Part shown: piece after piece, positions 8,936 through 34,591 of the stretch
How positions within the stretch are numbered: position 1 is the first letter of the stretch
How the letters are laid out: every line of letters starts with the position of its first letter
NCBI GenBank assembly: GCA_020345765.1
Contig: CP070770.1
Location: 3,362,347-3,401,481, forward strand
Length of the DNA stretch: 39,135 nucleotides
Source of the DNA: Deltaproteobacteria bacterium
Lineage (GTDB): Bacteria; Desulfobacterota; G020345765
Direction: 5' to 3'
Translations under genes and position numbers: made by a program
Notes under the pieces: model-generated
Seen by the model: the letters and a program-made list of their open reading frames with translations, nothing else
Databases searched by the model: none
Told to the model about the DNA's origin: nothing

Positions 8936-11900
8936 ATGAGAAAGTTTTTTACCTTTGGTTTTTTTCTTCTATTTCTTGCTGGATTTATCAGTTCCAGCGC
9001 CGGACAGAAGCTTCCCAATAAAGGCAATTTCATTCGCCTCCGCACAGTTCAATTCGACCCCCAGAAAGGGAAGCCGGCTTTACCTAAAGGTTTACAGGTA
9101 GTGGAGTCTGAAATAAAAAAGAAAGGTTTTTATATCCTTCAATTTAAGGCTCCGGTTCGAAATGGCTGGAAGGAGAAATTGAAGATTCTGAAAGTAAAAT
9201 ATTTTAGCTATATACCTGAAAATGCTTATATCGTCAAGATGACTCCCGAAGAGAAACTCAAGGTAGAGAAACTTCCCGAAGTGCGTTGGGTCGGAATCTA
9301 CCAACCAGCTTATAAGATTCAGCCAGAGATATTGGAAGGCAAGTTTCATGAAGAGAAGGAAGATAGAATCAAGCTCATTATCCAGGTTTTTGCCGATGAA
9401 GACTACCAGTCAGTAGCTCAGAAAGCACGTAAGATCGGGTTTGATGTTCTTGAAACAACTGACGGTGTTTTCCATGAGGTTTTACGGTTGGAGGTTGCAA
9501 AATCAGGTCTTCGAGAGAAACTGAACTCATTGGCCAAAATCTCCGAAGTAGAATGGATCGAAGAATATGTTCCTCCTGAGTTTCACAACGACAGTGCCCG
9601 CTGGATTATTCAGTCATACGTTGCCGGAAACACTCCCTTATGGGATCGGGGCCTGACAGGTGGTGGGCAGATTGTAGGAACGGGAGATACCGGAGTGGAT
9701 GTGGATGCGTGTTTTTTTTATGATTCCAGTGAAGGAATTCCTGGTGAAATTCTAAACCCTAACCAGCGAAAGATTCTCGTTTACCATGACCTGGCAGGAG
9801 ATGGTGGTTATGATAGCTGTTTCTTTGCCCACGGAACCCACACTGCCGGTACCATTGCCGGGGATAACTTTGCTAACCTGGGGGCTTATGACCTTAATGA
9901 TGGGATGGCTTTCGATGCAAAATTGGTGATTCAGGACATTGGTTGGGGCTGCTCACTTACCGGGATTCCTGGTGATCTAAATTTTTATTTTCAGCAATCA
10001 TATGATGATGGTGCCCGGATCCATTCCAATAGCTGGGGGGCTTCCGTTGGAGGTGCCTACACGACTGCCTCTCAAAATTGTGATGAGTTTATGTGGTCAC
10101 ATAAGGATTTTCTGATTCTCTTTTCTGCCGGAAATGATGGGGCATTTGGAATTGGCTCTCCTGCTACCGCCAAGGATTTAATTTCAGTAGGGGCAACCGA
10201 GAATGATCATCCCGGATATGACCCGGAAAACGTGGCTGATTTCAGCAGTCAGGGACCCACAGATGATGGAAGATATAAACCCACTATTGGAGCCCCGGGA
10301 GACTATTTGAATTCAGCCTACGGAGATAACAATATATCAACCTTCAACTGTAATTATCAGCAGATGAGTGGAACCAGTATGGCCTGCCCTGCCACTGCCG
10401 GAGCGGCAGCTTTAATCCGTCAATACTTTACAGACGGTTACTATCCCAGTGGCACCCCAGACCCGGGAGACGCCTTTTCCCCAAGTGCGGCTTTGATAAA
10501 AGCTATCCTGGTCAACAGCGGTAAGAATATGTCGGGATCCTATATTGGAGGAGCAATACCCGGGACCGGACAGGGATGGGGGAGGATACTACTTGACGAT
10601 ACCCTTTTCTTCCCGGGAGATACAAAGGGTTTGGTAGTTATTGACGAGACTTCTGGATTGAATACCGGGGAGACTGCCGTTTATACATATTATGTTGACG
10701 GGAATAACCCCTTGGAAATTAGTCTGGTCTGGACGGATTATCCCTCCACTCCCTCAGCAATGATAAATTTGGTCAATGATCTTAATCTGGTAGTAACCGG
10801 GCCCAGTGGGACTTATCTGGGAAATAATTATTCTGGTGGTGAGTCAGTGCCCGGTGGAAGTGCTGACTACCTCAATGTAGTGGAAAATGTTCAGATCAAC
10901 TCTCCACTGGCCGGGTCTTACACCATTATGATCTCGGCTTTAAATGTCCCCCAGGGTCCTCAGCCTTATGCTCTGGTGGTTACCGGAGCCGCTGCCTGCA
11001 GCAGTAAGGGGATAGTCAGGTTCGATGCCGAGAAATACAACGGCACGGCTACCGTAAATATTACCCTGGCAGACTGTGACCTTAACCTTGATCCGGGAGT
11101 AATTGACAGTGCTACTGTTGGGATGACCAGCAATACCGAACCTACTCCCGAAATAGTTAGCGTATTGGAAACCGACCTGGATTCAGGGGTGTTTGCCGGT
11201 TCTATTTCCTTAAGCATTGGCACCCCCTCACCGGACGGAATCCTTCAGGTTTCTGACGGCGATGTAATTACCGTATCTTACGACGATGCTGATGATGGGA
11301 CTGGTAGCCTGGCGACGGATACCGATACTGCCTTGATCGATTCCTCCCCCCCGGTTATCACTAATGTTGATGCCCATCCTGACGCTTCGGGAACATTTGC
11401 CACGATTACCTGGAATACCGATGAGGAGAGTAACAGTGTGGTCTACTACGGGCTTACTCCTTCGCTGGGTCAGAACGAATCAGTGGCTATATTAAGTACA
11501 GATCACTCGGTAGTTCTTAACGGATTGGTTCCAATGAGTACTTATTACTTTGATGTGGAATCTACAGACTCGGTGGGTAACACCACCCGGGATGATAACA
11601 GTGGAGCCCATTATCAGTTCGGCACTACTCCACCGGAAATAGAAGTTTTTCCAACGAACCTGAATGTCACTATTCCCGAAGGAGTATGGACCGACCAGAT
11701 CATTACTATTTCTAATCTTGGAGTTGATGCTGATTTAACCTTTGATATTGTTGAAGAAGAATTAGGAATTGGTTTCATAGACGATATGGAAAGTGGAATT
11801 AATGGATGGGTAGCCAGTGGCCTCTGGCATCAAGTTGATGATTTTACCAGTCCTTGCCCTAACAGCCACAGCCCCACCCATAGCTGGTGGTATGGGCAAG

Positions 11901-14900
11901 ACTTTGCTTGCGATTATGACACTGGAATGTCCAATAGTGGCACTTTGGTATCGCCTTCATTTATTGCTCCTGAAAATCCAAACTTGACTTTCTGGAGCTG
12001 GGAGCAGACAGAGTGTGGTGGCGTTTGTTTTTATGATAAGCGCTATGTTGATATTTCAGTAAATGGAGGTGGTTTTATCAACATACTTGATTTAGGTACA
12101 GAAAATACCTGGTATCAAGTCAGTCAGGATCTCTCACCCTGGGTTAGTACCGGGGATACAGTTCAGTTACGTTTCCGGTTTGAAACGGGTGATGGGATTT
12201 TAAACAATTTTGACGGTTGGTATATTGATGATGTAATGATTGGCGGGGATATCCCCTGGCTTTCGGAGTTCCCTACCTCAGGTGCAGTATTCCCTCAAAG
12301 CTCTATTGATATTCTTGTTACTTTTGATTCAAGAGGATTAACTCCGGGAACCTACGAGGGTAATTTGGTTATCAATAATGATGACCCGGATGAAAATCCG
12401 GTAACAGTCCCGGTAACGCTAACGGTAACTCCTTCTCCGGCAATTGCCTATTTTAGCCATGTTATTGATGATGACTCTTCCGGGGAAAGCAATGGCAGTG
12501 GCAATGGAATAGCGGAGCCCGGAGAGATCGTGGAGGTTCCAGTTACCCTGATTAATAATGGAAGTGTTGATGGTTTTGGCATTACCGCCGCTCTCTCCAC
12601 TGATGATCCTTACATCACTATAAATGATAACTTTGAGGATTTCGGGGATATTCCGGTAGGTATTAATGTTACCAGCCCCGATGATTTCGATTTTATAGTA
12701 GATCCGTCTACTCCCTGCGACTACAATGTAACTTTTAACCTGGAGATATTTGATACGGGAAGCGGCTACTGGTCAGATAGCTTTGAGATTACCATTATGT
12801 GTGTTCCGGACATCGAAATCTCCCCTCCGGCTATGGCTGCTACCATTCTTGAGGGGGCAACGCTTGACCAGATCCTGAACATCTCCAACTTGGGAATTGC
12901 AGATTTGGACTTCGATATTACCGAACTCGGGGATGGAGGGATAACATTCTACATGCAGGCCTCCGATTATGACTCCGACCTCGTCAAGAGTATAGACGGC
13001 TCAGGGGCTGTTACGAGTTTTTATTCTATGACAGATCCCTGGGGTATAGACTTCAATGCAGGTTATATGTATGTTTGCTCAGGCGGTGGATATATCCATA
13101 AGGTTGACCCATCAGGCTCTGGCTCCGTATTCTTTACCGGAATGGGCAATTGCCGTGGGCTTGCATTCGACTCATCGGGAATGCTCTACGCTTCTGATGG
13201 GGCGGCTGGTGTTATTTACGCGATTGCCCCTGATGGTTCGGGAAGTATTTTTGCCTCTGGTCTAAACAACCCTATTGGGGTGGCTTTCGATACGGCGGGT
13301 AACTTATATGTTTCCGAATGGTCCGCCAATCAAATCACCAAGATTGATCCTACGGGCACTCCGTCGGTATTTGCGAGCCCCGTCCCTGATCCATATGATT
13401 TGGATTTTGACTCGGCGGGATACTTATATGCAGCAACAGGGTATAGTGGCATGGACATTAAGAAGATTTCTCCCGATGGCTTAACTATTGTCTCCTTTGC
13501 CACACTACCCGGCTGCTCATGGGTAACAGGTCTGGAAGTAGACAAAGGCACCGATCTGGTCTATGGGAGCTGTTCGGATGACGGGAATGTGTACTCGATC
13601 GACTCGACCGGAACGCCGACTTTGCTGGCCAACATCGTTGGGCCGCGGGTGTTCAACCTAACCCTCCCGATAGGGGGCTTCGGGGATGTCCTCTGGCTGA
13701 GTGAATCTCCAACCACCGGGACGGTAACTCCCGGGGGCTCGGAGGATATAACAGTAACCTATACTGCTACCGACCTCTCACCGGGAACCTATAGTGCGTC
13801 ACTGATCGTTAACAACAATGATCCAAATGATAATCCGGTAGCAGTCCCGGTAACTCTCACAGTAACGCCCTCACCGGCAATTGCCTATTTAAGCCATATT
13901 ATTGATGATGATTTTAGTGGTGGAAGCGAGGGTAATGGTAATGGAATAGTGGAACCCGGAGAGATGATAGAAATCCCGGTTACCTTAATAAATAATGGTA
14001 GTATGGATGGTTTCGGTATTACGGCTACCCTTACCACCGATGATCCTTACATCAGTATTGAAGGAGGCTTTGGATGGTTTGGGGATATTCCGGTAGGATC
14101 TACGGCTACCTGCCTTCCTGATGACTTCTTTTTTGATGTTAATGCATCTGCCCCCTGTGACCACATTGCAACTTTCAACCTGGAGATCTTTGATACGGGA
14201 AGCGGCTACTGGACTGATAGCTTTGAGATAACTATTATATGCCTCCCTGATATCGAAGTATCGCCTTCGGCCATGGCTGCCACAATTCCCGAAGGGACTA
14301 CAATTGACCAGATCCTGAACATCTCTAATACGGGTCTGGTTGATCTGGACTTCAACATCGTAGAAGTTGGGCCGGGCGGCAGTATCACGTTCCTCGATGA
14401 TACCTTTCCTGCCACAACCCTGGATCCCACGAAGTGGACTAACAATGGGGCTGAAGTCAACACCCTGGGCATCAATCCTCCAAGTCCGCCCTATGTGCTG
14501 GATCTAAAGGCCGGAGACTCCGTTACCTCGATGACATTCGATGCCTCCTTTGGGCCAGTAGATTATTCATATTGGTGGGAGCGACAGGGAGCAGGAGAAT
14601 CTCCTGATCCAAATGAGTATCTGCAATTTGAGTGGTGGGATGGAACTTCCTGGATCATGGAGCAACAGCATGCCTATAATGAGGGATCCACGACCAATTT
14701 CACCCAGGTAACCGGAACACTACCCCCTGGGGCTAGTTTTGATGGACTTCAAATCCGCTTCCGGAACACCAGCATATCCGGTTCCACCTTCGATGATTAC
14801 CTGGTAGATGATGTAACCATAGGGGCGATAGACGCAATTCTGTGGTTAGTTGAGAATCCCGAATCAGGCACCATTATACCAGCAAACTCCCAGCCGGTTG

Positions 14901-17900
14901 ATCTGACCTATTCGTCGGTTGACTTAGCTCCGGGAACATATACTGGTGACCTCAATATACACAGCAACGATCCCGATGAGGATCCAGTAACAGTTCCGGT
15001 AACTCTCACAGTAACTCCGTCCCCGGTAATTGCCTATTTAAGTTGTACTATTAATGATGACACTGCGGGGGAAAGCAGTGGTAACGGAAATGGTATGGCG
15101 GAGCCCGGAGAAATAATAGAGATAACGGTTACCCTGATTAATAATGGGAGTTTGGAAGGCTTTGGTATTACAGCTACCCTTTCTACCGATGATCCATTGA
15201 TCGTAATAAATGACAACTATGAAAGTTTCGGGAATATTCCGGCAGGTGCTAATGCTCCCAGTCTCGATGATTTCGATTTAATGGTAGATCCGGCTACTCC
15301 CTGTGATCATAATGTAACTTTAAACCTGGAGATTTTAGACTCGGGAAGCGGTTCCTGGACAGATAGCTTTGAAATAATCATTACTTGCGAGCCGGACATC
15401 GAAGTATCTCCTCCGGCCATGGCTGCTACTATTCCTGAATGGACTACACTTGACCAACTCCTGACCATCTCCAACTTTGGCATAGCGGATTTAAATTTCA
15501 ATATTACCGAAATAGGGGATATTCCTTGGCTAAGTGAATCTCCTACAACCGGAATTGTAATACCCGGCGATACAGATGAAATAATAATAACTTATGATGC
15601 CGGCAGCCTCCTGCCGGGAACCTACAGTGCGTCATTTAATATTAACAATAACGACCCAAATGATAATCCGGTGACAATCCCAATAACTCTTACAGTAACA
15701 GCCTCACCGGCGATTGCCTATTTAGGCCATATTATTGACGATGACTCTAATGGGGAAAGCGATGGTAGTGGCAATGGAATAGCAGAGCCCGGGGAGATCG
15801 TGGAGGTTCCAGTTACCCTGTTTAATAATGGAAGTGTCAATGGTTTTGGCGTTACGGCTACCCTTTCCACCGACGATCCCTACATCATCATAAATGACAA
15901 TTTTGAGGATTTCGGGGATATTCCGTCAGATACTGCAGTTACCAGTCCCGACGATTTCGATTTTTTAGTAGATCCTTCTACTCCCTGTAACTACACGGCA
16001 ACTTTAGACCTGGAGATTTTTGATTCGGGAAGTGGCTATTGGGTAGATAGCTTTGAGATAACTATTATGTGCGTGCCGGAGATTGAAGTCTCTCCCCCAG
16101 CTCTGGCTGCCACCATCCCCGTAGGGAGCACACTTGACCAGAACCTGACCATCTCAAATCTTGGAGCTGTTGTTGATTTAGACTTCAGTATTATAGAAGA
16201 AGAAGTTTCAACTTTAGCTAAAATAACAAGAAACTCTTCAAGTGCCTCGCCCGTTTTAACTGGATCTGGAGGGCCGGACGGATATGGTTATCGCTGGATA
16301 GATAGTGATGAGCCAGGAGGACCAGTTTATGATTTTATTGACATTGTCCCAATCGGGACGCAGATAACGGGAATATATGATGATACTAATGTTGGCCCTT
16401 TTAACATCGGCTTTGATTTCCCCTTTTATGGAAATACCTACAATAGCTTCCGCTTTTGTACCAATGGATTTATCAGCTTCACAAGCACATCAGCCCAATA
16501 CTCTAATACATCCATTCCCAGTAGCGGTGCTCCCTACAATCTAATTGCTCCTTTTTGGGACGATCTAAATTTCTCTTCCGGAGGGAGTGCCTATTATTAT
16601 TCAAACGGGGTAGATACCCTAATAATTTCTTACCTTGGTGTTCCCCATTATGGGTCAGGAGGGCCTTACACCTTTCAGATAATCCTCAAAGCGTCCGGCA
16701 CTATTACCTATCAATATGAATCAATGGGAATTCCAGACAACAGCGCCACTCTTGGTATTCAAAACAGCGATGGAAGCGATGGGCTTCAAGTTGTATATAA
16801 TAGCAGTTATGTCCACGATCTGCTGGCAGTTAGGATATCAAAAGGCGTGGACTGGTTGGAAGAGAACCCGGAATCTGGCATTGTGCCTCCAGCCAGTTCC
16901 CAAGATATCATTGTAACTTACGATGCAAGTAATTTAACTCCAGGCGTTTATAATGCCAATTTAATTATCAATAATAACGACCCGGATGAAAATCCGGTTA
17001 CAGTCCCGGTAACCCTCACAGTTATTGACTCGCCGGCAATTGCTTATCTGAACCATTTTGTTGATGATGATAACTTAGGGTCGAGTATTGGCAATGGTAA
17101 TGGAATAATAGAGCCCGGGGAGACAGTAGAGATTCCGGTTGCCTTGATTAATAATGGAAGTATGGATGGTTTTGGTATTACTGCCACCCTTTCAACCGAT
17201 GATCCCTACATTACTATAATTGATAACCTTGAGGATTTCGGTGATATTCCGATAGGTGTTAGTGTTACCAGCCCCGATGATTTCGATTTTTTGGTAGATC
17301 CGTCTACTCCCTGCGACCACAGTGTGATTTTCAACCTTGAGATTTTTGACTCCGGAAGCGGGCACTGGACGGATAGCTTTGAGATGAATGTTATGTGCGT
17401 ACCAGAGATTGAAGTCTCTCCACCAGCCATGGCTGCCACCATTCCTGAGGGGACTACACTTGACCAGATATTGACCATCTCCAATATAGGCAGCGAAGAT
17501 TTAGACTTCGAAATTATCGAAGGTGGTGGACCGGGAACTATTAGTGTGGCAATTTTCGACCACGACGCAACCGGCGATATTTCGTATTGGATTGGCGGTA
17601 ATATGAACTCATGGGCAGCCTATCAAACAGTTCTAAATGGTGATCCGGAAGGAAGGTTTAATGTAAGCATTATTACCGATCTTACAGACACCACTCTGGC
17701 TGGATTTGATGTTCTTATGCTTCCCGATAATGCGGTGCCTGATATCTATCTGGCTGATGTTGATTCATGGTTCCTTGAGGGAAAGAATATCATTGCCATT
17801 GATAGTGCTGCTTGTTACGCTCATTTCTCAGGCTATTTTCAACCTCTCAGTGCCGGGTCAAATGGTTACGGAACTTACTGGAACTATAATTCATCCCTTA

Positions 17901-20900
17901 ACGACCAGGAAGTTATCACCATTGATTTTATCACCAGGGCATATACAGTAGGGGATGTTATAGGCTCGTTGGTGGGAGATGCTCAACTTTTTGCCAGCAG
18001 CTTTTCCACAGAAGTAGTCGCCCTGACTGCAAAGGCATCTAATCCCAACATGACCTATGCTGCTTACAGAGATGTTCCGGGCAAGGGAAGAATAATCGTA
18101 TTGGGCCCTTATCAGACGCCACCTGCAGCAAATACTTATCCTCTAATTCAGGACGCCGCAGCATCCTTGGGCTTATATGGTGATATTCCCTGGCTGAGTG
18201 AATCCCCCATTATCGGAACTGTGATTCCTGGCAATACTGCTGGGATAACGGTCACCTATAACTCAACCGGTATGGCTCCCGGAACATATACCGGAAATTT
18301 AATCGTAAATAATAACGATCCGGATGAGAACCCAATAACTGTTCCGGTGACTCTCACGGTTGCTGCCTCTCCCCCAGCAATTGACTATTTAAGTCATGTT
18401 ATTGATGATGACTCTGCTGGGGAAAGCGGCGGCAACGCTAATGGAATTGCGGAGCCCGGGGAGATCGTGGAGGTTCCAGTTACCCTGATCAATAATGGGA
18501 GTGGTAATGGCTTAGGCATTACAGCCACTCTTTCTACCGATGACCTCTACATCACCATTAATGATAACTTTGAGGATTTCGGGGATATACCAGCAGGTAC
18601 TAATGTTGCCAGTCCTGATGATTTTGATTTTGTGGTAGATCCATCTGCTCCCTGCAACCATAATGTAACTTTTAATCTGGAGATATTTGATTCGGGAAGT
18701 GGCTACTGGACAGATAGCTTTGAGATAACTATTATGTGCGTGCCGGAGATAGAAGTTTCTCCTCCAGCAATGGCTGATACTTTGCCCGAGACGACTACGG
18801 GGTATCAGACTCTGACCATATCCAATATTGGCAGCGAAACCTTAATCTTCTTTATCGGCGAAGATCCTTCGGTAGACTGGCTTAGTGAAGATCCAGCCTT
18901 CGATGCAGTTGCACCAGGTGATTCTTCTGAAATTACCGTTACTTTTGATGCCACTAATTTGGCTGTGGGGAATTATTATGTTGATCTCACTATTTTAACC
19001 AATGACCCGAATGATCTTGTAGTTACCGTTCCGGTGAGCTTAACCGTCTTTCCCGGCCCCATTATGGCTTTTGAGAGTTTTACCATTGATGACGATAACA
19101 TGGGTGAGAGCCTGGGAGATGGTGATGGTTCTCCCGAGCCAGGAGAGAAGATCGAATTGGTGGTTACATTGATAAATGAAGGTATCTTAACGGGCTCAGG
19201 GATCATTGCTACTCTTTCTACCGCTGACCCGCTGATTAAGATTACCGATAACCAGGAGAATTTTGGCGATATTGCTGCGGGAGCCACTGGTGTCTGTCTC
19301 GATGACTTCGACTTTGTCGTTGATTCAAGCACCCCGGACGGACACATAGTGAGCTTTGCCCTTGATATTTCCTATTCCGGCAGCGGAACCTGGGTTGATA
19401 GCTTTGAGGTAGAGATTATCTTATTAAGCTCAATTTCCGGATGGGTAACCGAACTAAACTCCGGGGTAGGGATACCCGGAGCCACCGTTTCTTACGCGGG
19501 ATTAATAACCGGTTCGGTAGGCACCGATCCCGAGGGGTATTATCAAATTAACGGCCTATCGGGTGGCTCGTATACCCTTTCTGCCAGTGCTTCCGGTTAT
19601 CAGGACTCATCCACTCCTCAGGAGGTAGTAGTGCCACCGGATGCCACCGAAGTTAATTTTACCTTCATAGGACCTGAGATCGAGGTAGAGCCTGATGAGC
19701 TTCAGGCAGTAATAAATATTGGTCAGGGGATTTCTACAACGCAAAACTTATATATTTATAACCAAGGTAGCTGGGAGCTTACTTTTGAAATCCTGGAATT
19801 ACCCACGGGCCCGATTACTATCGGTGGGGGTCCTGATGAGGCGGGCTACCAGTGGATCGATAGTGATGATCCGGATGGTCCGGTTTTCAACTGGGTTGAT
19901 ATTTCTGCAATAGGGACGGAGATTACCGGTTTGGGTGATGATAGTAACATTGGACCATTTGGTATCGGTTTTGATTTCCCTTTCTATGGGAACCTCTTTA
20001 ATACCTTCCGTTTTTGCAGCAACGGCTGGATTAGCTTTGACAGTACTCTTACCAGCTTCGCCAATCAGCCCATCCCCAATGTTCTTGCCCCTACTAACCT
20101 GATAGCCTCCTTCTGGGATGACCTTGACTTCACTCAGGGAGGAAGGGCCTATTACTACTCGAACGGAGAAGATCTCCTCATAGTCGCGTTCCATGACGTC
20201 ATGAATATTAACAACGAGGGCCCATACACTTTTGAGATCGTCCTTACTCCCTCTGGTAATATTACCTTACAGTATCAAGAATTGGGCGGGCCAACTGATA
20301 ATGCTACCGTGGGCATCCAAAATAATGATGGGACCGTGGGACTGGAGATTGTTTACAACACAGCTTATCTGCACGATGCATTGGCAGTCCAGATCTTTCA
20401 AGGTCTATCCTGGCTTGCCGAGTCTCCTGACTCGGGTAGTATTTCCCCGGGAGGCTCAACCAATATTGAAGTAGTCTTCGATGCGAATGGGCTAAATGCT
20501 GGGACCTACACCGCCAGCCTCCTTATCTCCAACAACGATCCGGAGGAAGGCCAGCTCACAATTCCGGTTACTCTGAAGGTAAATAATCTCCCGGTTATTA
20601 CTTCAGTGGCACCAACTACGGCAACGGAGGGCTCTCTCTATAATTATGATGTTGAGGCCTTTGATGTAGATGATGATCCTCTAACTTATAATTTGACTCT
20701 TTCCCCTCTCGGGATGAGCATTGATCCATTAAATGGGCTAATCGAATGGACCCCAGTATACTCTCAGGTCGGAGGCAATCCTGTTAGTATTGAGGTTTCT
20801 GACGGTAATGGTGGAGTCGACACCCAGAGCTATATTATCGAGGTTGCCTTCATGGATAACGATGGCGACGGACTCCCTGATACCTGGGAAGAAAGCTATG

Positions 20901-22843
20901 GATTAGACCCGGATGATCCAACGGGTGATAATGGGGCCGATGGGGACCCAGATAACGATGGAATTACTAATTTTGAAGAGTACCTGGGAGGAACCAATCC
21001 CATGGTTAGTAATGCCCCCACAGCGCCTTCCCTGAATTTCCCGGAAATGAACTCAGAGGTAGAGACCCTCTACCCGACACTATCGATTAATAACTCCTCA
21101 GACCCTGATGGCGACCCGGTAAGCTATGAGTTTGAACTCTACCAGGATGCTTCCCTACTTAATCTGGTGTGGGGCGTTACCGGTATCCCCGAGGGCGATA
21201 ATACCACTGAACAAAACGTTGATTTGGAACTTCAGGATAATACCTATTACTGGTGGCGGGCGCGGGCCTTTGATGGTAAAGGCTACAGCGACTGGATGAT
21301 GGTAGGGGGACCACTCAGTGGCGTAGTGGCATGTTTCTTTGTCAATACCGCAAATGATCCCCCAACTGCTCCTAATCTCAGTGCTCCCCCGGAGGGTAGT
21401 GCGGTAAGTGTGTTCAGTCCCACCCTGCAGGTAAATAACTCTATTGATGTCGATAATGACCAGTTAACCTACTTCTTTGAGATTGACATAGTCCCTGCCT
21501 TTAACAGCTTTGAGTTACAGCAATCTTCTGCCCAGACCGAAGGGGAAGCGGGGACGACTTCCTGGGCTCCTTTAGTAGCTCTGAGTGATAATACCCTTTA
21601 TTATTGGCGAGCCCGCTCAGAGGATGAACATGGCAGTAGTTCCATTTGGATGTCGACTGCTACCTTCTTCGTCAATACTGCCAACGATGCTCCCAGCGAT
21701 CCCGAAATAGCGGAACCCCAACAAGAAGCAGAAGTTACCACCCTGAAACCTTTACTCATAGTTGAAAACTCCTATGACCTGGACATGGATAGCCTCGTGT
21801 ATTACTTCGAGATTAGTGAGACCCAAAATTTCTCTGATCCTACCAGCAGATCTCCGGCAATAGTCGAGGGAACGGATACTACTGCCTGGCAGACGCCGAC
21901 CCTGCAGGATAATGTTCATTATTACTGGAGGGTGAGGGCCTACGATGGCCAGGCAAGTAGTAACTGGGTAAACGGTCGTTTCTTTGCCAATTGCTTTAAC
22001 GACCCTCCCTCAGTACCGGTTCCGGTTAATCCTTCCGATGGGGGTGAGGTTACAATAGCGACACCGCTATTAATCATAGCCAATTCTATTGACCTCGATT
22101 TAGATGAGCTAAGCTATCTATTCGAGGTTTACCAGGATCCTCAATTAACTATTCTAATTTCCCTTTCGAGCCCCGTGGCCGAGGATCAGCTGAGAAATGT
22201 AACCGCATGGACCGTTGGCGCAGTGTTAACTGAAAACGCCACCTATTACTGGATTGCTGAAGCCGTGGATGAGCATGGGGAGGAAAGTGGTTGGTCTAAC
22301 GCAAGTTCCTTTATGGTTAATACTGTCAATGATATTCCCACCGGGGTCACTATTAACTCACCCAGAGCTGGGGAGATAATTAATAATAATACTCCCACAT
22401 TAGTTTTGAATAAGGGTTTCGATGCCGATGGTGATGAGTTAACCTATGAATTTGAGGTGTTCAGTGACAGACAGCTTTATGATATGGTAGCAACAATAGT
22501 TGGTATCAAGGAAGATGAGGTTACCGTTTCCTGGGTAGTGGAGCCAGAACTTGGAGGTGACAAGACCTACTACTGGCGGGGGAGGGCCTTTGATGGTCAG
22601 GCTTACAGCAGTTGGACCGAGACTGCCAGTTTCAAAATAGGAGACGCGGAGGTCACAACTGTGGTAGAAAGTACGGGATGTAGCTGTAAAACTATCGGCG
22701 GACATTCACGGTTTGGAACGAGCCAGTTTGGAATAGTTGTGCTTATCTACCTGATTCCCCTATCGGCTTTGAGAATCTTGAAGGCCCACTATATCTGGAA
22801 AAGGAAAAGGTTAAAAGCTAAAGGAGTAGGTAATTTAAAATAA
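8936..22843 (+). CDS. Giant secreted subtilisin-like (S8) protease with seven-fold repeat mosaic and MYXO-CTERM-like tail
   Basis: A 4635-residue protein with an N-terminal signal peptide (residues 1-23) and a pro-region to ~220. The S8 catalytic domain has Asp251 (GTGDTGVD), His299 (AHGTHTAG) and Ser481 (SGTSMACPATAG), followed by a P-domain-like beta region and a fibronectin-like domain (~805-900). Then come seven copies of a 125-residue module (residues 1167-3497), each linked by an Asp/Hydin-like module (EVSPPAMAATIPEG...ISN) and a WLSESPTTG...NNDPDENPVTVPVTLTV module. Inserted between them are two jelly-roll domains, an NHL-like propeller (~1337-1585), two GYxWIDSD domains (~2444-2637, ~3629-3822), a GATase-like domain (~2864-3082) and a carboxypeptidase-regulatory-like domain. 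A cadherin-like domain, an Asp-rich calcium-type stretch (DNDGDGLPDTWEE) and five fibronectin-like repeats follow. The C-terminus has C4582-S-C4584, a membrane helix and a basic end, so the protein is probably anchored or processed at the surface. Start chosen from GAGGTGAG and the signal peptide. Confidence 0.93.
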   Translation: MRKFFTFGFFLLFLAGFISSSAGQKLPNKGNFIRLRTVQFDPQKGKPALPKGLQVVESEIKKKGFYILQFKAPVRNGWKEKLKILKVKYFSYIPENAYIVKMTPEEKLKVEKLPEVRWVGIYQPAYKIQPEILEGKFHEEKEDRIKLIIQVFADEDYQSVAQKARKIGFDVLETTDGVFHEVLRLEVAKSGLREKLNSLAKISEVEWIEEYVPPEFHNDSARWIIQSYVAGNTPLWDRGLTGGGQIVGTGDTGVDVDACFFYDSSEGIPGEILNPNQRKILVYHDLAGDGGYDSCFFAHGTHTAGTIAGDNFANLGAYDLNDGMAFDAKLVIQDIGWGCSLTGIPGDLNFYFQQSYDDGARIHSNSWGASVGGAYTTASQNCDEFMWSHKDFLILFSAGNDGAFGIGSPATAKDLISVGATENDHPGYDPENVADFSSQGPTDDGRYKPTIGAPGDYLNSAYGDNNISTFNCNYQQMSGTSMACPATAGAAALIRQYFTDGYYPSGTPDPGDAFSPSAALIKAILVNSGKNMSGSYIGGAIPGTGQGWGRILLDDTLFFPGDTKGLVVIDETSGLNTGETAVYTYYVDGNNPLEISLVWTDYPSTPSAMINLVNDLNLVVTGPSGTYLGNNYSGGESVPGGSADYLNVVENVQINSPLAGSYTIMISALNVPQGPQPYALVVTGAAACSSKGIVRFDAEKYNGTATVNITLADCDLNLDPGVIDSATVGMTSNTEPTPEIVSVLETDLDSGVFAGSISLSIGTPSPDGILQVSDGDVITVSYDDADDGTGSLATDTDTALIDSSPPVITNVDAHPDASGTFATITWNTDEESNSVVYYGLTPSLGQNESVAILSTDHSVVLNGLVPMSTYYFDVESTDSVGNTTRDDNSGAHYQFGTTPPEIEVFPTNLNVTIPEGVWTDQIITISNLGVDADLTFDIVEEELGIGFIDDMESGINGWVASGLWHQVDDFTSPCPNSHSPTHSWWYGQDFACDYDTGMSNSGTLVSPSFIAPENPNLTFWSWEQTECGGVCFYDKRYVDISVNGGGFINILDLGTENTWYQVSQDLSPWVSTGDTVQLRFRFETGDGILNNFDGWYIDDVMIGGDIPWLSEFPTSGAVFPQSSIDILVTFDSRGLTPGTYEGNLVINNDDPDENPVTVPVTLTVTPSPAIAYFSHVIDDDSSGESNGSGNGIAEPGEIVEVPVTLINNGSVDGFGITAALSTDDPYITINDNFEDFGDIPVGINVTSPDDFDFIVDPSTPCDYNVTFNLEIFDTGSGYWSDSFEITIMCVPDIEISPPAMAATILEGATLDQILNISNLGIADLDFDITELGDGGITFYMQASDYDSDLVKSIDGSGAVTSFYSMTDPWGIDFNAGYMYVCSGGGYIHKVDPSGSGSVFFTGMGNCRGLAFDSSGMLYASDGAAGVIYAIAPDGSGSIFASGLNNPIGVAFDTAGNLYVSEWSANQITKIDPTGTPSVFASPVPDPYDLDFDSAGYLYAATGYSGMDIKKISPDGLTIVSFATLPGCSWVTGLEVDKGTDLVYGSCSDDGNVYSIDSTGTPTLLANIVGPRVFNLTLPIGGFGDVLWLSESPTTGTVTPGGSEDITVTYTATDLSPGTYSASLIVNNNDPNDNPVAVPVTLTVTPSPAIAYLSHIIDDDFSGGSEGNGNGIVEPGEMIEIPVTLINNGSMDGFGITATLTTDDPYISIEGGFGWFGDIPVGSTATCLPDDFFFDVNASAPCDHIATFNLEIFDTGSGYWTDSFEITIICLPDIEVSPSAMAATIPEGTTIDQILNISNTGLVDLDFNIVEVGPGGSITFLDDTFPATTLDPTKWTNNGAEVNTLGINPPSPPYVLDLKAGDSVTSMTFDASFGPVDYSYWWERQGAGESPDPNEYLQFEWWDGTSWIMEQQHAYNEGSTTNFTQVTGTLPPGASFDGLQIRFRNTSISGSTFDDYLVDDVTIGAIDAILWLVENPESGTIIPANSQPVDLTYSSVDLAPGTYTGDLNIHSNDPDEDPVTVPVTLTVTPSPVIAYLSCTINDDTAGESSGNGNGMAEPGEIIEITVTLINNGSLEGFGITATLSTDDPLIVINDNYESFGNIPAGANAPSLDDFDLMVDPATPCDHNVTLNLEILDSGSGSWTDSFEIIITCEPDIEVSPPAMAATIPEWTTLDQLLTISNFGIADLNFNITEIGDIPWLSESPTTGIVIPGDTDEIIITYDAGSLLPGTYSASFNINNNDPNDNPVTIPITLTVTASPAIAYLGHIIDDDSNGESDGSGNGIAEPGEIVEVPVTLFNNGSVNGFGVTATLSTDDPYIIINDNFEDFGDIPSDTAVTSPDDFDFLVDPSTPCNYTATLDLEIFDSGSGYWVDSFEITIMCVPEIEVSPPALAATIPVGSTLDQNLTISNLGAVVDLDFSIIEEEVSTLAKITRNSSSASPVLTGSGGPDGYGYRWIDSDEPGGPVYDFIDIVPIGTQITGIYDDTNVGPFNIGFDFPFYGNTYNSFRFCTNGFISFTSTSAQYSNTSIPSSGAPYNLIAPFWDDLNFSSGGSAYYYSNGVDTLIISYLGVPHYGSGGPYTFQIILKASGTITYQYESMGIPDNSATLGIQNSDGSDGLQVVYNSSYVHDLLAVRISKGVDWLEENPESGIVPPASSQDIIVTYDASNLTPGVYNANLIINNNDPDENPVTVPVTLTVIDSPAIAYLNHFVDDDNLGSSIGNGNGIIEPGETVEIPVALINNGSMDGFGITATLSTDDPYITIIDNLEDFGDIPIGVSVTSPDDFDFLVDPSTPCDHSVIFNLEIFDSGSGHWTDSFEMNVMCVPEIEVSPPAMAATIPEGTTLDQILTISNIGSEDLDFEIIEGGGPGTISVAIFDHDATGDISYWIGGNMNSWAAYQTVLNGDPEGRFNVSIITDLTDTTLAGFDVLMLPDNAVPDIYLADVDSWFLEGKNIIAIDSAACYAHFSGYFQPLSAGSNGYGTYWNYNSSLNDQEVITIDFITRAYTVGDVIGSLVGDAQLFASSFSTEVVALTAKASNPNMTYAAYRDVPGKGRIIVLGPYQTPPAANTYPLIQDAAASLGLYGDIPWLSESPIIGTVIPGNTAGITVTYNSTGMAPGTYTGNLIVNNNDPDENPITVPVTLTVAASPPAIDYLSHVIDDDSAGESGGNANGIAEPGEIVEVPVTLINNGSGNGLGITATLSTDDLYITINDNFEDFGDIPAGTNVASPDDFDFVVDPSAPCNHNVTFNLEIFDSGSGYWTDSFEITIMCVPEIEVSPPAMADTLPETTTGYQTLTISNIGSETLIFFIGEDPSVDWLSEDPAFDAVAPGDSSEITVTFDATNLAVGNYYVDLTILTNDPNDLVVTVPVSLTVFPGPIMAFESFTIDDDNMGESLGDGDGSPEPGEKIELVVTLINEGILTGSGIIATLSTADPLIKITDNQENFGDIAAGATGVCLDDFDFVVDSSTPDGHIVSFALDISYSGSGTWVDSFEVEIILLSSISGWVTELNSGVGIPGATVSYAGLITGSVGTDPEGYYQINGLSGGSYTLSASASGYQDSSTPQEVVVPPDATEVNFTFIGPEIEVEPDELQAVINIGQGISTTQNLYIYNQGSWELTFEILELPTGPITIGGGPDEAGYQWIDSDDPDGPVFNWVDISAIGTEITGLGDDSNIGPFGIGFDFPFYGNLFNTFRFCSNGWISFDSTLTSFANQPIPNVLAPTNLIASFWDDLDFTQGGRAYYYSNGEDLLIVAFHDVMNINNEGPYTFEIVLTPSGNITLQYQELGGPTDNATVGIQNNDGTVGLEIVYNTAYLHDALAVQIFQGLSWLAESPDSGSISPGGSTNIEVVFDANGLNAGTYTASLLISNNDPEEGQLTIPVTLKVNNLPVITSVAPTTATEGSLYNYDVEAFDVDDDPLTYNLTLSPLGMSIDPLNGLIEWTPVYSQVGGNPVSIEVSDGNGGVDTQSYIIEVAFMDNDGDGLPDTWEESYGLDPDDPTGDNGADGDPDNDGITNFEEYLGGTNPMVSNAPTAPSLNFPEMNSEVETLYPTLSINNSSDPDGDPVSYEFELYQDASLLNLVWGVTGIPEGDNTTEQNVDLELQDNTYYWWRARAFDGKGYSDWMMVGGPLSGVVACFFVNTANDPPTAPNLSAPPEGSAVSVFSPTLQVNNSIDVDNDQLTYFFEIDIVPAFNSFELQQSSAQTEGEAGTTSWAPLVALSDNTLYYWRARSEDEHGSSSIWMSTATFFVNTANDAPSDPEIAEPQQEAEVTTLKPLLIVENSYDLDMDSLVYYFEISETQNFSDPTSRSPAIVEGTDTTAWQTPTLQDNVHYYWRVRAYDGQASSNWVNGRFFANCFNDPPSVPVPVNPSDGGEVTIATPLLIIANSIDLDLDELSYLFEVYQDPQLTILISLSSPVAEDQLRNVTAWTVGAVLTENATYYWIAEAVDEHGEESGWSNASSFMVNTVNDIPTGVTINSPRAGEIINNNTPTLVLNKGFDADGDELTYEFEVFSDRQLYDMVATIVGIKEDEVTVSWVVEPELGGDKTYYWRGRAFDGQAYSSWTETASFKIGDAEVTTVVESTGCSCKTIGGHSRFGTSQFGIVVLIYLIPLSALRILKAHYIWKRKRLKAKGVGNLK
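9611..10612 (+). other. Peptidase S8 catalytic domain within the giant protein (approximate limits)
   Basis: This segment encodes the subtilase fold of the giant protein. The catalytic triad is complete: Asp251, His299 and Ser481, with the oxyanion Asn in ILFSAGNDGAFG. The catalytic Ser motif GTSMACPATAG is canonical. The D-H spacing is close to that of subtilisin while the H-S spacing is longer, as in Kp43-like and other large secreted subtilases. The preceding ~200 residues resemble two I9-like inhibitor/propeptide halves. Boundaries are by eye. Confidence 0.88.
12434..12808 (+). repeat. 125-aa module, copy 1 of 7 (SPAIAY...ITIMCVP)
   Basis: This 375-bp in-frame unit encodes SPAIAYFSHVIDDD, an EPGEIVEVPVTLINNG segment, a DDPYITINDNFEDFGDIP segment and the closing SFEITIMCVP. 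It is the reference copy for the series. The conserved DDD and GNGxxEPGE words suggest a calcium-stabilised beta domain; that is inference. Confidence 0.9.
13871..14248 (+). repeat. 125-aa module, copy 2 of 7
   Basis: A 378-bp unit, one codon longer than most. It begins SPAIAYLSHIIDDD and ends SFEITIICLP. It differs from copy 1 mainly in the central segment (ISIEGGFGWFGDIP). It is followed by a Hydin-like link and an inserted jelly-roll domain. Confidence 0.9.
15020..15394 (+). repeat. 125-aa module, copy 3 of 7
   Basis: A 375-bp unit beginning SPVIAYLSCTINDD and ending SFEIIITCEP. One Asp of the DDD word is replaced by Asn. No domain is inserted between this copy and copy 4; only the short WLSESPTTG link separates them. 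Confidence 0.9.
15704..16078 (+). repeat. 125-aa module, copy 4 of 7
   Basis: A 375-bp unit beginning SPAIAYLGHIIDDD and ending SFEITIMCVP. It is followed by the first GYxWIDSD domain (GGPDGYGYRWIDSDEPGG). Confidence 0.9.
17030..17404 (+). repeat. 125-aa module, copy 5 of 7
   Basis: A 375-bp unit beginning SPAIAYLNHFVDDD and ending SFEMNVMCVP. It is followed by an inserted alpha/beta domain (VAIFDHDATGDISYWIGG...GRIIVLGPYQTPP) resembling GATase1-like folds. Confidence 0.9.
18371..18745 (+). repeat. 125-aa module, copy 6 of 7
   Basis: A 375-bp unit beginning PPAIDYLSHVIDDD and ending SFEITIMCVP. Only a short Hydin-like/WLSE link separates it from copy 7. Confidence 0.9.
19055..19426 (+). repeat. 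125-aa module, copy 7 of 7 (most divergent)
   Basis: A 372-bp unit beginning GPIMAFESFTIDDD, with PEPGEKIELVVTLINEG in the middle and ending SFEVEIILL. It is clearly the most diverged copy and closes the array. A carboxypeptidase-regulatory-like domain (ISGWVTELNSGVGIPGATVS) follows directly. Confidence 0.85.
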
Positions 22844-30336: not shown

Positions 30337-30362
30337 TCCATCCCATTAGCGCATTATTTTAG

Positions 30363-33090: not shown

Positions 33091-33495
33091 CTACGAATAA
33101 GGTATCATAGATTCTACCCATCGGACAACTCGCTCGGCGAGAGCGAGGGCTTCTGCATAATCCTCTGCGGTGACATCTTCGGACATCCCGGGATACCTCG
33201 TTTCTACTGCATACCCGGTCAGAAAGTCGGCATGGCGAATCTCTTCCGGAACATCCATCCCACTCTGATGGAGTATAGTCAGTAGATCCATGATATCGTG
33301 AGTCTTTGGAAACGGTACATTTCGATAGACCAACAGAGCCTTGAGGGCCTTCTCCGTTGCCTGCTAGGCATCAAAACAAAAATCTTCGTAGAGGACTTCA
33401 GGAAGATTGCGGTCCGCCTTAGCTTTTGCCAGGTTTCTGCGGGCCCTACGAAGCCATTCGGCAGGTTTAGTCGGGTCGCGGTGCTCAGGCGGCAT
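33091..33495 (-). pseudogene. HEPN-domain protein, interrupted by an in-frame TAG
   Basis: Read from the ATG at 33495, the frame encodes a HEPN-type protein of 134 codons: an EWLRRARRNLAKAKAD helix, EDFCFDA, then TAG at codon 44 (33364-33366 on the plus strand), then QATEKALKALLVYRNVPFPKTHDI, DLLTILHQSG, and HADFLTGYAVETRYPG with an EALALAERVVRWV helix. HEPN proteins of this type usually read A-Q-Q-A-x-E-K-A-L-K-A at that point, so the TAG replaces a Gln codon (CAG to TAG, one transition). TAG is a normal stop elsewhere in the window (AsmA and DUF4388 genes), so read-through is unlikely. The start overlaps the end of the nucleotidyltransferase gene by 11 bp, the usual MNT-HEPN arrangement. 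No Rx4-6H RNase motif is visible. A downstream restart (TTG at 33333) would give 80 residues lacking the first helices. Confidence 0.8.
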
Positions 33496-33805
33496 AAATT
33501 ACCTTACCTTCCTGAAGAGCGGGGCCGGTGATTGCGCCTACTTTATCGCCAAAGGCTTTGATGTCTTCAGGGGTGACCACAATGATATCTACTGGTACAC
33601 CCAGTCCGAAAAAATTCATATGGATCTGTTGGGCAAGGCGGCGCCGGTGAGGCACACCAGATTTTACCACAAGCAGATCGATATCGCTGTCTGGCCCTAA
33701 TTGATCGCGGGCGGCAGAGCCGAATAGGATAATCCGCTCAGGCTGCGCCACTTCTACTACTCGGCGGACGATCTCGTCCAAAATAGAATGGTTAATGGTA
33801 CTCAT
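33485..33805 (-). CDS. Minimal nucleotidyltransferase (MNT-type antitoxin family)
   Basis: A small nucleotidyltransferase of 106 residues from the ATG at 33805. It contains the pol-beta signature GSAAR at 29-33 and the metal-binding D41-x-D43 in LGPDSDIDLLVVKSG. In MNT-HEPN toxin-antitoxin systems such proteins (MntA type) modify the HEPN partner, often by adding AMP. The ATG at 33805 gives the usual family N-terminus (INHSILDEIVRRVVEVAQPERIILFGSAAR) and has AAGGTC upstream; an ATG at 33862 in the same frame would add 19 basic residues and cannot be excluded. The 3' end overlaps the HEPN reading frame by 11 bp. With the HEPN gene broken, the protein may have no partner here. Confidence 0.85.
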   Translation of the reverse strand: MSTINHSILDEIVRRVVEVAQPERIILFGSAARDQLGPDSDIDLLVVKSGVPHRRRLAQQIHMNFFGLGVPVDIIVVTPEDIKAFGDKVGAITGPALQEGKVIYAA

Positions 33806-34012
33806 GACCTTGAATGTGCTTATGCGAGGGGTGCTATTATTACCCTTATGTTGCCTCCTCATTTTCTCTCAGATCGAAAGATTAACACAAGAATACTTTG
33901 AAGTAAAGTTTTCCCGGAACTGAATGACTTATTCGAAAGCGGGTGAAAAGAGGTTTTTTTGAGAAAGGATTGTTTACAACCTCGTTATACCTATTTTCGG
34001 AAACAAATAAGT

Positions 34013-34510
34013 CTAATTAGCGCATTCGGAGGGGTCTCCCTTGAGCTTTTCGAGTGCATGAGGGAGGGTCGGGAGGATGAAGGAGAGGCCGGTATTAACC
34101 GCCTGGGGGGATCCGGGTAGGTTGATAATTAGCGTGTAGCCCCGGGTGCCGGCCATTCCCCGGGAGAGCATTGCTCGGGAAGTGGACTTGAGGCCCTCCC
34201 AGCGGATCGCCTCCGCAATGCCGGGGAGTTCCTTTTCCAGAACCTCCCGGGTGGCCTCCGGGGTTAAATCACGAGGGCTTAGACCGGTGCCACCGGTAGT
34301 TAAAATAAGGTCAAGTTTTTTATTATCCACCCAATCAATTAGCTTCTGGCTGATAAGCCCTTGGTCGTCGGGGATTATTTCGTAAGATTTCACATTGATT
34401 CCCGCTTCGGTAAGGAGACGGCGGATCTTCTCTCCGCTCTTATCTTCACGCTCTCCTTTGGCTCCTTTGTCGCTTATCGTTAGAATACCGGCGTTAATCA
34501 TTAATTTCAT
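34013..34510 (-). CDS. MoaB/MogA-family molybdopterin-binding protein
   Basis: A 165-residue member of the MoaB/MogA fold, which adenylylates molybdopterin before molybdenum insertion. Seen are the N-terminal AGILTISDKGAKGEREDKSG, the substrate loop LILTTGGTGLSPRDLTPEAT, the SRAMLSRGMAGTRG segment and NLPGSPQAVNTGL. These are diagnostic for the family; MogA versus MoaB cannot be separated by eye. Its start (34510, or the Met codon three codons later) has no strong Shine-Dalgarno. It is the last gene of the minus-strand run, separated from the MglA-like gene by 81 bp containing 10-bp tandem repeats. No other molybdenum-cofactor gene is in the window. Confidence 0.93.
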   Translation of the reverse strand: MKLMINAGILTISDKGAKGEREDKSGEKIRRLLTEAGINVKSYEIIPDDQGLISQKLIDWVDNKKLDLILTTGGTGLSPRDLTPEATREVLEKELPGIAEAIRWEGLKSTSRAMLSRGMAGTRGYTLIINLPGSPQAVNTGLSFILPTLPHALEKLKGDPSECAN

Positions 34511-34520
34511 TTATCACGAG

Positions 34521-34560
34521 GAATATCAGGGAATAGCAGGGAGTAGCAAGGAATAGCAGG
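34521..34560. repeat. Four 10-bp tandem repeats (gaatagcagg type)
   Basis: Four consecutive units occur: gaatatcagg, gaatagcagg, gagtagcaag, gaatagcagg (34521-34560), followed by a partial copy (ga). They fill half of the gap between the MglA-like gene and mogA and begin 10 bp before the mogA start codon as read on the minus strand. Repeat of this kind may arise by slippage and could alter mogA translation or mRNA structure. Confidence 0.85.
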
Positions 34561-34591
34561 GATTTATTATTTGAATTTTGGGCCTTGGCAT

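What the first reader, a model, noticed from the sequence alone, without database searches (positions are those of the whole stretch)
33091..33805. MNT-HEPN toxin-antitoxin-type pair with the HEPN gene stopped at codon 44
The reading frame on both sides of the TAG is clearly HEPN, and the TAG sits where the family normally has Gln, needing only one C-to-T change. The antitoxin-type gene looks intact. This could be true decay with a retained antitoxin, strain-level variation, or a sequencing error. TAG is a normal stop in neighbouring genes, which argues against recoding.
Basis: partly seen in the sequence, partly recalled or inferred. Interest (0 to 1): 0.5.

Follow-up and report, generated by a model that had tools for sequence, protein, structure and literature searches.

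The report
Broken bacterial toxin beside intact antitoxin
A two-gene bacterial toxin-antitoxin unit in which the toxin gene has been cut short by a stop codon while its antidote gene is whole; similar losses recur in related units, so this case is ordinary decay, and the pattern suggests which of the two genes is the toxin.

Summary
On the minus strand an intact MNT gene (33485-33805) overlaps the start of a PF05168 HEPN gene (33091-33495) whose codon 44 is TAG (33364-33366). The HEPN profile runs through the stop (98.7 bits), and residue 44 lies in helix 2 of the read-through model.

It is a decayed Class II HEPN/MNT pair (PF05168/PF01909), not HepT/MntA. Recoding is unsupported: no PylS match, no CUA tRNA called, and TAG ends 7 of 22 window genes.

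Such breaks are one-sided. In the top 150 listed matches of two phylum samples, HEPN had internal stops in 9 and 7, MNT in 2 and 0. Of 180 joined pairs, 11 had only HEPN stopped and none only MNT. In 80 partly overlapping loci HEPN was broken in 8, MNT in 1 of 79. Toxin-first decay is known in other families; here it supports HEPN as the toxin of Class II pairs.

No reads were available, so strain variation or a consensus error stays open for this base.

The parts
33091..33495 (-). PF05168 (HEPN) gene, interrupted: ATG at 33495, in-frame TAG at codon 44, original end TAG at 33091
   Evidence: PF05168 98.7 bits through the stop
33364..33366 (-). premature TAG, in the first Gln column of the QQxxEK motif, inside predicted helix 2 (residues 36-57)
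33485..33805 (-). MNT nucleotidyltransferase (PF01909), intact, GSX10DXD motif GSAARDQLGPDSDID; possible longer start at 33862
33367..33495 (-). predicted remaining HEPN product of 43 residues: helix 1 and the first 8 residues of helix 2
33091..33333 (-). 80-codon open stretch after the stop starting at a TTG; lacks helix 1 and most of helix 2; not thought to be made
   Evidence: inference

Best explanation
This is a Class II HEPN/MNT toxin-antitoxin unit, probably an accessory one at a variable site, in which the HEPN (toxin) gene has been inactivated by one nonsense mutation at codon 44 while the upstream, overlapping MNT (antitoxin) gene stays intact. Ribosomes stop inside helix 2, leaving a 43-residue fragment without most of the bundle and without the invariant E48, H66 and R100. 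Shown: the stop, the MNT with its catalytic motif, the predicted fold of the read-through protein, and the recurrence and one-sidedness of such breaks. Inferred: that HEPN is the toxin, that it is dead here, and that losing the toxin is harmless or favoured while losing the antitoxin first would poison the cell.
For: Profile match through the stop; Gln in 24 of 24 aligned relatives; one lesion only, with about 12-15 nonsense mutations expected per neutral substitution per site, so the break looks recent (upper bound about 0.20-0.24 substitutions per site). Read-through model pLDDT 89, closest to PF05168-type structures (1ufb Z 17.6, rmsd 2.1, 119 aligned). Top 150 listed matches in 395 genomes of the phylum: HEPN stops 9, MNT stops 2; in 396 genomes of a second phylum 7 and 0; pooled Fisher p 0.0011. 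Joined pairs: 11 of 180 HEPN-only, 0 MNT-only. 80 loci from named genomes, partly the same: HEPN broken in 8 of 80, MNT in 1 of 79. 24 of 24 MNTs checked beside a broken HEPN have no stop over the matched domain and keep GSX10DXD.
Against: No reads and no second strain of this species. Set 1 alone is not significant (p 0.061). The HEPN model is longer than the MNT model (about 118 against 93 codons per match in set 1), the lists are capped at the best 150, and loci are related, so p values are rough. Counter-examples: L167 (MNT stop, HEPN intact), L140 (MNT lacks the second Asp of DXD, HEPN intact), and L045, L059 and L060, where both genes look damaged. L196 has a 1-nt deletion near its MNT start. 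Toxicity was not tested here.
Confidence: 0.82

Rival explanations
1. The TAG is a consensus error or a minority/strain-specific allele; the dominant population encodes a whole HEPN.
For: Single base, no second lesion; the genome looks metagenome-derived (one contig, 85% complete; the origin is my inference).
Against: Similar stops occur in many other assemblies and hit HEPN more than MNT, which random errors would not do. None of the other 6 HEPN matches in this genome has a stop.
Confidence: 0.13
2. The TAG is read through or recoded, so the full HEPN is made at a low level.
For: Two other loci (L044, L151/L183) have a stop in exactly this column, and four (L038, L041, L184, L193) have one in a conserved Trp column. 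Without transition bias, three or more stops in this column would be unlikely (P 0.008).
Against: No PylS match, no CUA anticodon among the 34 tRNAs ARAGORN called, TAG ends 7 of 22 window genes, no unusual RNA fold (z 0.13). With a transition bias of 3 or 6 the chance of three or more in this column is 0.053 or 0.12.
Confidence: 0.02
3. The gene now works in two pieces, a 43-residue N-terminal peptide and a C-terminal piece made by re-initiation.
For: The frame after the stop is open, with a TTG at 33333.
Against: The break is inside helix 2; the TTG lies 31 nt past the stop and I see no well-spaced ribosome site before it (by eye); other broken loci are cut at scattered columns.
Confidence: 0.03

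Closest known systems
Class II HEPN/MNT modules (PF05168/PF01909), as named in PMC7641770 section 22 (read in full)
   Same: PF05168 HEPN beside a PF01909 MNT with GSX10DXD; no RX4H in HEPN; a conserved Tyr in the family
   Different: HEPN is interrupted here. The toxicity tests described in that section used Class I pairs only.
HepT/MntA type VII (Class I) toxin-antitoxin (PMC7641770, PMC11586414, PMC4621449; passages)
   Same: MNT gene upstream of HEPN, MNT catalytic motif, HEPN fold (Z about 10, a level that the tool warns can be mere shared arrangement in helical bundles)
   Different: No RX4HXY motif; MntA_antitoxin model scores 30.4 against a cut-off of 60; different Pfam HEPN family
Toxin-first decay of chromosomal toxin-antitoxin loci (PMC7280312, passages; it cites Mine et al. 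2009 on ccdO157, not held)
   Same: Toxin gene truncated or missing beside a retained antitoxin (52% of xre-res, 27% of higBA, 23% of brnTA homologous loci there)
   Different: Other families; the searches listed no paper that I recognised as giving such a count for PF05168/PF01909
HEPN-T (PF05168) group of Anantharaman et al. 2013 (PMC3710099, passages)
   Same: His of RX4-6H replaced by Asp in several members, with another conserved His before it; compare R100...D107 with H66 here
   Different: This gene is interrupted

Membership tests
Class II HEPN/MNT (PF05168/PF01909) | HEPN domain of PF05168 | tested here: met
   98.7 bits, cut-off 22; model closest to 1ufb, 2hsb, 1wol, 1o3u
Class II HEPN/MNT (PF05168/PF01909) | adjacent MNT of PF01909 | tested here: met
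   42.8 bits, cut-off 21; overlapping gene upstream
Class II HEPN/MNT (PF05168/PF01909) | GSX10DXD in MNT | tested here: met
   GSAARDQLGPDSDID
Class II HEPN/MNT (PF05168/PF01909) | no RX4H, but a conserved Tyr in HEPN | tested here: inconclusive
   No RX4H at R100; Y101 invariant, but whether Y101 is the Tyr meant in the paper was not tested
Class II HEPN/MNT (PF05168/PF01909) | complete HEPN reading frame | tested here: not met
   TAG at codon 44: a decayed member
Class II HEPN/MNT (PF05168/PF01909) | HEPN toxic, MNT neutralises | not testable with these tools
   Needs expression assays
Type VII HepT/MntA (Class I) | RX4HXY motif in HEPN | tested here: not met
   R100-YPGMSE-D107, no such His
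Type VII HepT/MntA (Class I) | HEPN of PF01934/PF08780 | tested here: not met
   Only PF05168 reported at E 0.001
Type VII HepT/MntA (Class I) | NCBIfam MntA_antitoxin NF047752 above cut-off | tested here: not met
   30.4 bits, cut-off 60
TAG recoding (pyrrolysine or suppressor tRNA) | PylS in the genome | tested here: not met
   0 of 1 genome at E 0.001; genome 85% complete
TAG recoding (pyrrolysine or suppressor tRNA) | tRNA with CUA anticodon | tested here: not met
   None among the 34 of 36 tRNA matches that ARAGORN called; 2 weak matches (L099, L100) were not called

The most novel reading that the evidence does not exclude
Across Class II HEPN/MNT pairs the HEPN is the toxin and is knocked out again and again, while the catalytically complete MNT is kept under selection as a stand-alone antidote, for example against related modules. 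In one near-identical pair of loci from two genomes (L194, L196), both HEPNs are frameshifted, at places 10 nt apart; MNT shows 0 of 299 substitutions against 8 of 394 in HEPN (Fisher p 0.012).
Probability: 0.3. Interest if true: 0.55.

Novelty: new member of a known kind. Interest (0 to 1): 0.33.

Why it matters
As a single locus it is ordinary. The survey it prompted bears on a question that was reversed once in the literature (MNT first predicted as toxin, HEPN later identified as such; PMC3710099 passages) and that the toxicity tests in PMC7641770 section 22 left open for Class II pairs: the gene lost first is HEPN. It also makes testable whether solo MNT genes act as antidotes. A further lead: the stop falls in the conserved QQxxEK motif of helix 2, the helix in which a Class I HEPN from Legionella has its Mg-binding Gln and Glu needed for RNase activity (PMC11586414 passages). 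Class II HEPNs, lacking RX4H, may use that site; this is inference, and the residues were not superposed.

Tried and rejected
Recoding: searched PylS, tRNAs, RNA fold and stop-column clustering; not supported. Three stops in the same Gln column (L001, L044, L151/L183) looked striking, but this is within reach of a transition-biased null built on 99 intact HEPNs; only the null without transition bias makes it unlikely (P 0.008).

Plasmids: no match to the HEPN. The first scan of genome contigs with the single protein found no relative; the alignment scan kept the best 80 of 447 confirmed loci. PADLOC gave weak MNT matches only. Of the 7 papers listed for HEPN/MNT pseudogenes, I looked at passages in three (PMC4621449, PMC2701414, PMC3710099) and saw no count of HEPN breaks. 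Foldseek alone gave one match at E 0.001 or better (1wol); one search is a second look at its candidates.

Rows dropped before counting: 12 rows were flagged with stops; 5 were dropped after because the stop was terminal, before the start, or the gene was truncated (L181, L185, L189, L190, L191). In the 80-locus sample, L177 MNT was left out because its DNA is masked. Broken HEPNs left out of the 24: L041 and L192 (no MNT found there by the A1 profile), L042 (MNT downstream, domain intact), L044 (only a fragment match at a distance), L045, L059 and L060 (MNT also damaged). The 23 genomes, which brought L193-L196, are in no count except the 24 (and L193 in the column test).

A first alignment of L194/L196 placed no gaps and inflated HEPN differences; the BLAST alignment replaced it.

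Full report
What is there. On the minus strand of the window, an MNT nucleotidyltransferase gene (33805 to 33485, possible earlier start at 33862) is followed, with overlapping ends, by a HEPN gene (33495 to 33091) whose 44th codon is TAG. Read across the stop, the HEPN scores 98.7 bits with PF05168 (cut-off 22); the MNT scores 42.8 with PF01909 (cut-off 21) and carries GSX10DXD. The stop column is Gln in 24 of 24 aligned relatives, chosen among loci with an intact HEPN. The read-through protein is modelled as five helices (11-26, 36-57, 68-77, 84-100, 110-130; mean pLDDT 89). Among Foldseek's candidates its nearest solved structures are PF05168-type proteins: 1ufb (Z 17.6, rmsd 2.1, 119 residues), 2hsb, 1wol and 1o3u, then the HEPN domain of sacsin; HepT toxins follow at Z about 10. 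The stop lies in helix 2, so the 43-residue product cannot form the bundle (inference).

Setting. The window is base 3,362,347-3,401,481 of a single-contig genome of 3.4 Mb, 85% complete. Six other HEPN matches in that genome have no internal stop. In the one other genome of the genus searched, the genes on the mogA side are conserved (75-84% identity) and 99 bases around the mogA end match, but the next 468 bases, where that contig ends, hold no HEPN/MNT pair. Beside mogA that genome has a ribbon-helix-helix/PemK-like pair and an aspartyl-protease-like reading frame (below Pfam's cut-off), with three copies of the mogA 3' end. It does hold a related pair elsewhere (L009, 49% identity). The site is variable, and the pair is probably accessory; that it was acquired here is an inference. 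The name mogA rests on a PF00994 match and recall.

Recoding is not supported. No PylS match was found. ARAGORN called 34 of the 36 tRNA matches and none has a CUA anticodon. TAG ends 7 of the 22 window frames I took as genes (TAA 12, TGA 3). The RNA around the stop folds no better than shuffles (z 0.13).

How common is this? The tool lists the best 150 matches. In 395 genomes of the phylum, 9 of 150 listed HEPN matches had an internal stop, and 2 of 150 listed MNT matches (Fisher p 0.061). In 396 genomes of the phylum of L151's genome the figures were 7 of 150 (after removing 5 false flags) and 0 of 150 (p 0.015). Pooled p is 0.0011. Joining the lists by position gave 65 pairs and 115 pairs (113 distinct HEPNs): 5 and 6 with only HEPN stopped, none with only MNT stopped. 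In the best 80 loci from named genomes, frameshifts and deletions were counted too: HEPN broken in 8 of 80, MNT in 1 of 79. This sample overlaps the others: two of the 8 (L117, L151) are among the 11 above, and further overlap was not checked. The two stopped MNTs of the first set sit beside a degraded or missing HEPN (by eye). In 24 of 24 checked loci with a broken HEPN, the MNT has no stop over the matched domain and keeps its catalytic motif; at 72 loci with intact HEPN, 69 keep it, and of the other three one is masked (L177), one lacks an Asp (L140) and one has a shorter spacing (L146).

Results against. Set 1 alone is not significant. L167 has a stopped MNT with an intact HEPN, L140 an MNT without the second catalytic Asp, and L045, L059 and L060 look damaged in both genes. 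The HEPN model is longer than the MNT model, the lists are capped, and the loci are not independent. L196 has a one-base deletion near its MNT start.

Do the stops cluster? Of 18 loci with an internal stop used in the test, three have it in the column of this TAG and four in a conserved Trp column. With transitions favoured, these two columns are among the three of highest expected weight: P(3 or more in this column) is 0.053 at a bias of 3, 0.12 at 6, but 0.008 at 1. I take this as ordinary mutation, not a programmed stop.

A near-identical pair of loci from two genomes (L194, L196; 98% identity) has HEPN frameshifted at places 10 nt apart, with 8 of 394 substitutions in HEPN, 9 of 444 in the 3' flank and 0 of 299 in MNT. 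This hints that MNT is kept after the toxin is lost, but it is one case.

Reading. The best-supported account is recent loss of the toxin gene by nonsense mutation in a Class II HEPN/MNT pair, with the antitoxin retained. That toxins are lost while antitoxins stay is known for other families (PMC7280312, passages). Makarova et al. 2009 remark, in the printed exchange with a reviewer, that pseudogenes in such small genes are hard to detect (PMC2701414, passages). For Class II pairs, PMC7641770 section 22 (read in full) describes toxicity tests on Class I pairs only, while PMC3710099 (passages) says that HEPN proteins without the motif were found to be toxic in a genome-scale screen. The one-sided decay counted here agrees with HEPN being the toxin.

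Verdict. Observation confirmed, interpretation supported, ordinary as a locus. The family-wide asymmetry is the useful by-product. Read mapping is the missing step for this base.

Noticed in passing
window 34520-34562: Short repeat built of GGAATAGCAGGG-like units; about 20 further matches in the own genome and over 40 in the sister genome.
   Followed up: no
L058 (G001:C444) 529-1985; window 34017-34043: The 3' end of mogA is present three times in the sister genome, flanking an aspartyl-protease-like frame and a ribbon-helix-helix/PemK-like pair; the 27-base tail occurs once in the own genome. Looks like an insertion hotspot.
   Followed up: partly
window 30345-30355 and 34016-34026: The same 11 bases (ATTAGCGCATT) stand at both ends of the segment holding the 841-aa propeller gene and the MNT/HEPN pair; possible trace of insertion (by eye).
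   Followed up: no
L098 (G000:C1:2445750-2445842): tRNA-SeC with UCA anticodon called in the own genome.
   Followed up: no
L181/L120 (probably one locus, contig length 49,629) and L185: Other arrangements of these genes: MNT-HEPN-MNT (L120, L181) and HEPN-MNT-HEPN (L185).
   Followed up: no
L044 (G058:C105): A degraded PF05168 HEPN with a stop in the same Gln column; within 1 kb upstream lie an MNT-like frame and a frame with an RNILVHEY motif that looks like a HepT-type (Class I) toxin (the label is from recall).
   Followed up: no
window 8936-22843: A 4635-residue reading frame that looks like a secreted, repeat-rich surface protein with a protease-like start (label from recall).
   Followed up: no
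L140: MNT with GSX10DXY in place of GSX10DXD beside an intact HEPN: a possible inactive antitoxin.
   Followed up: no
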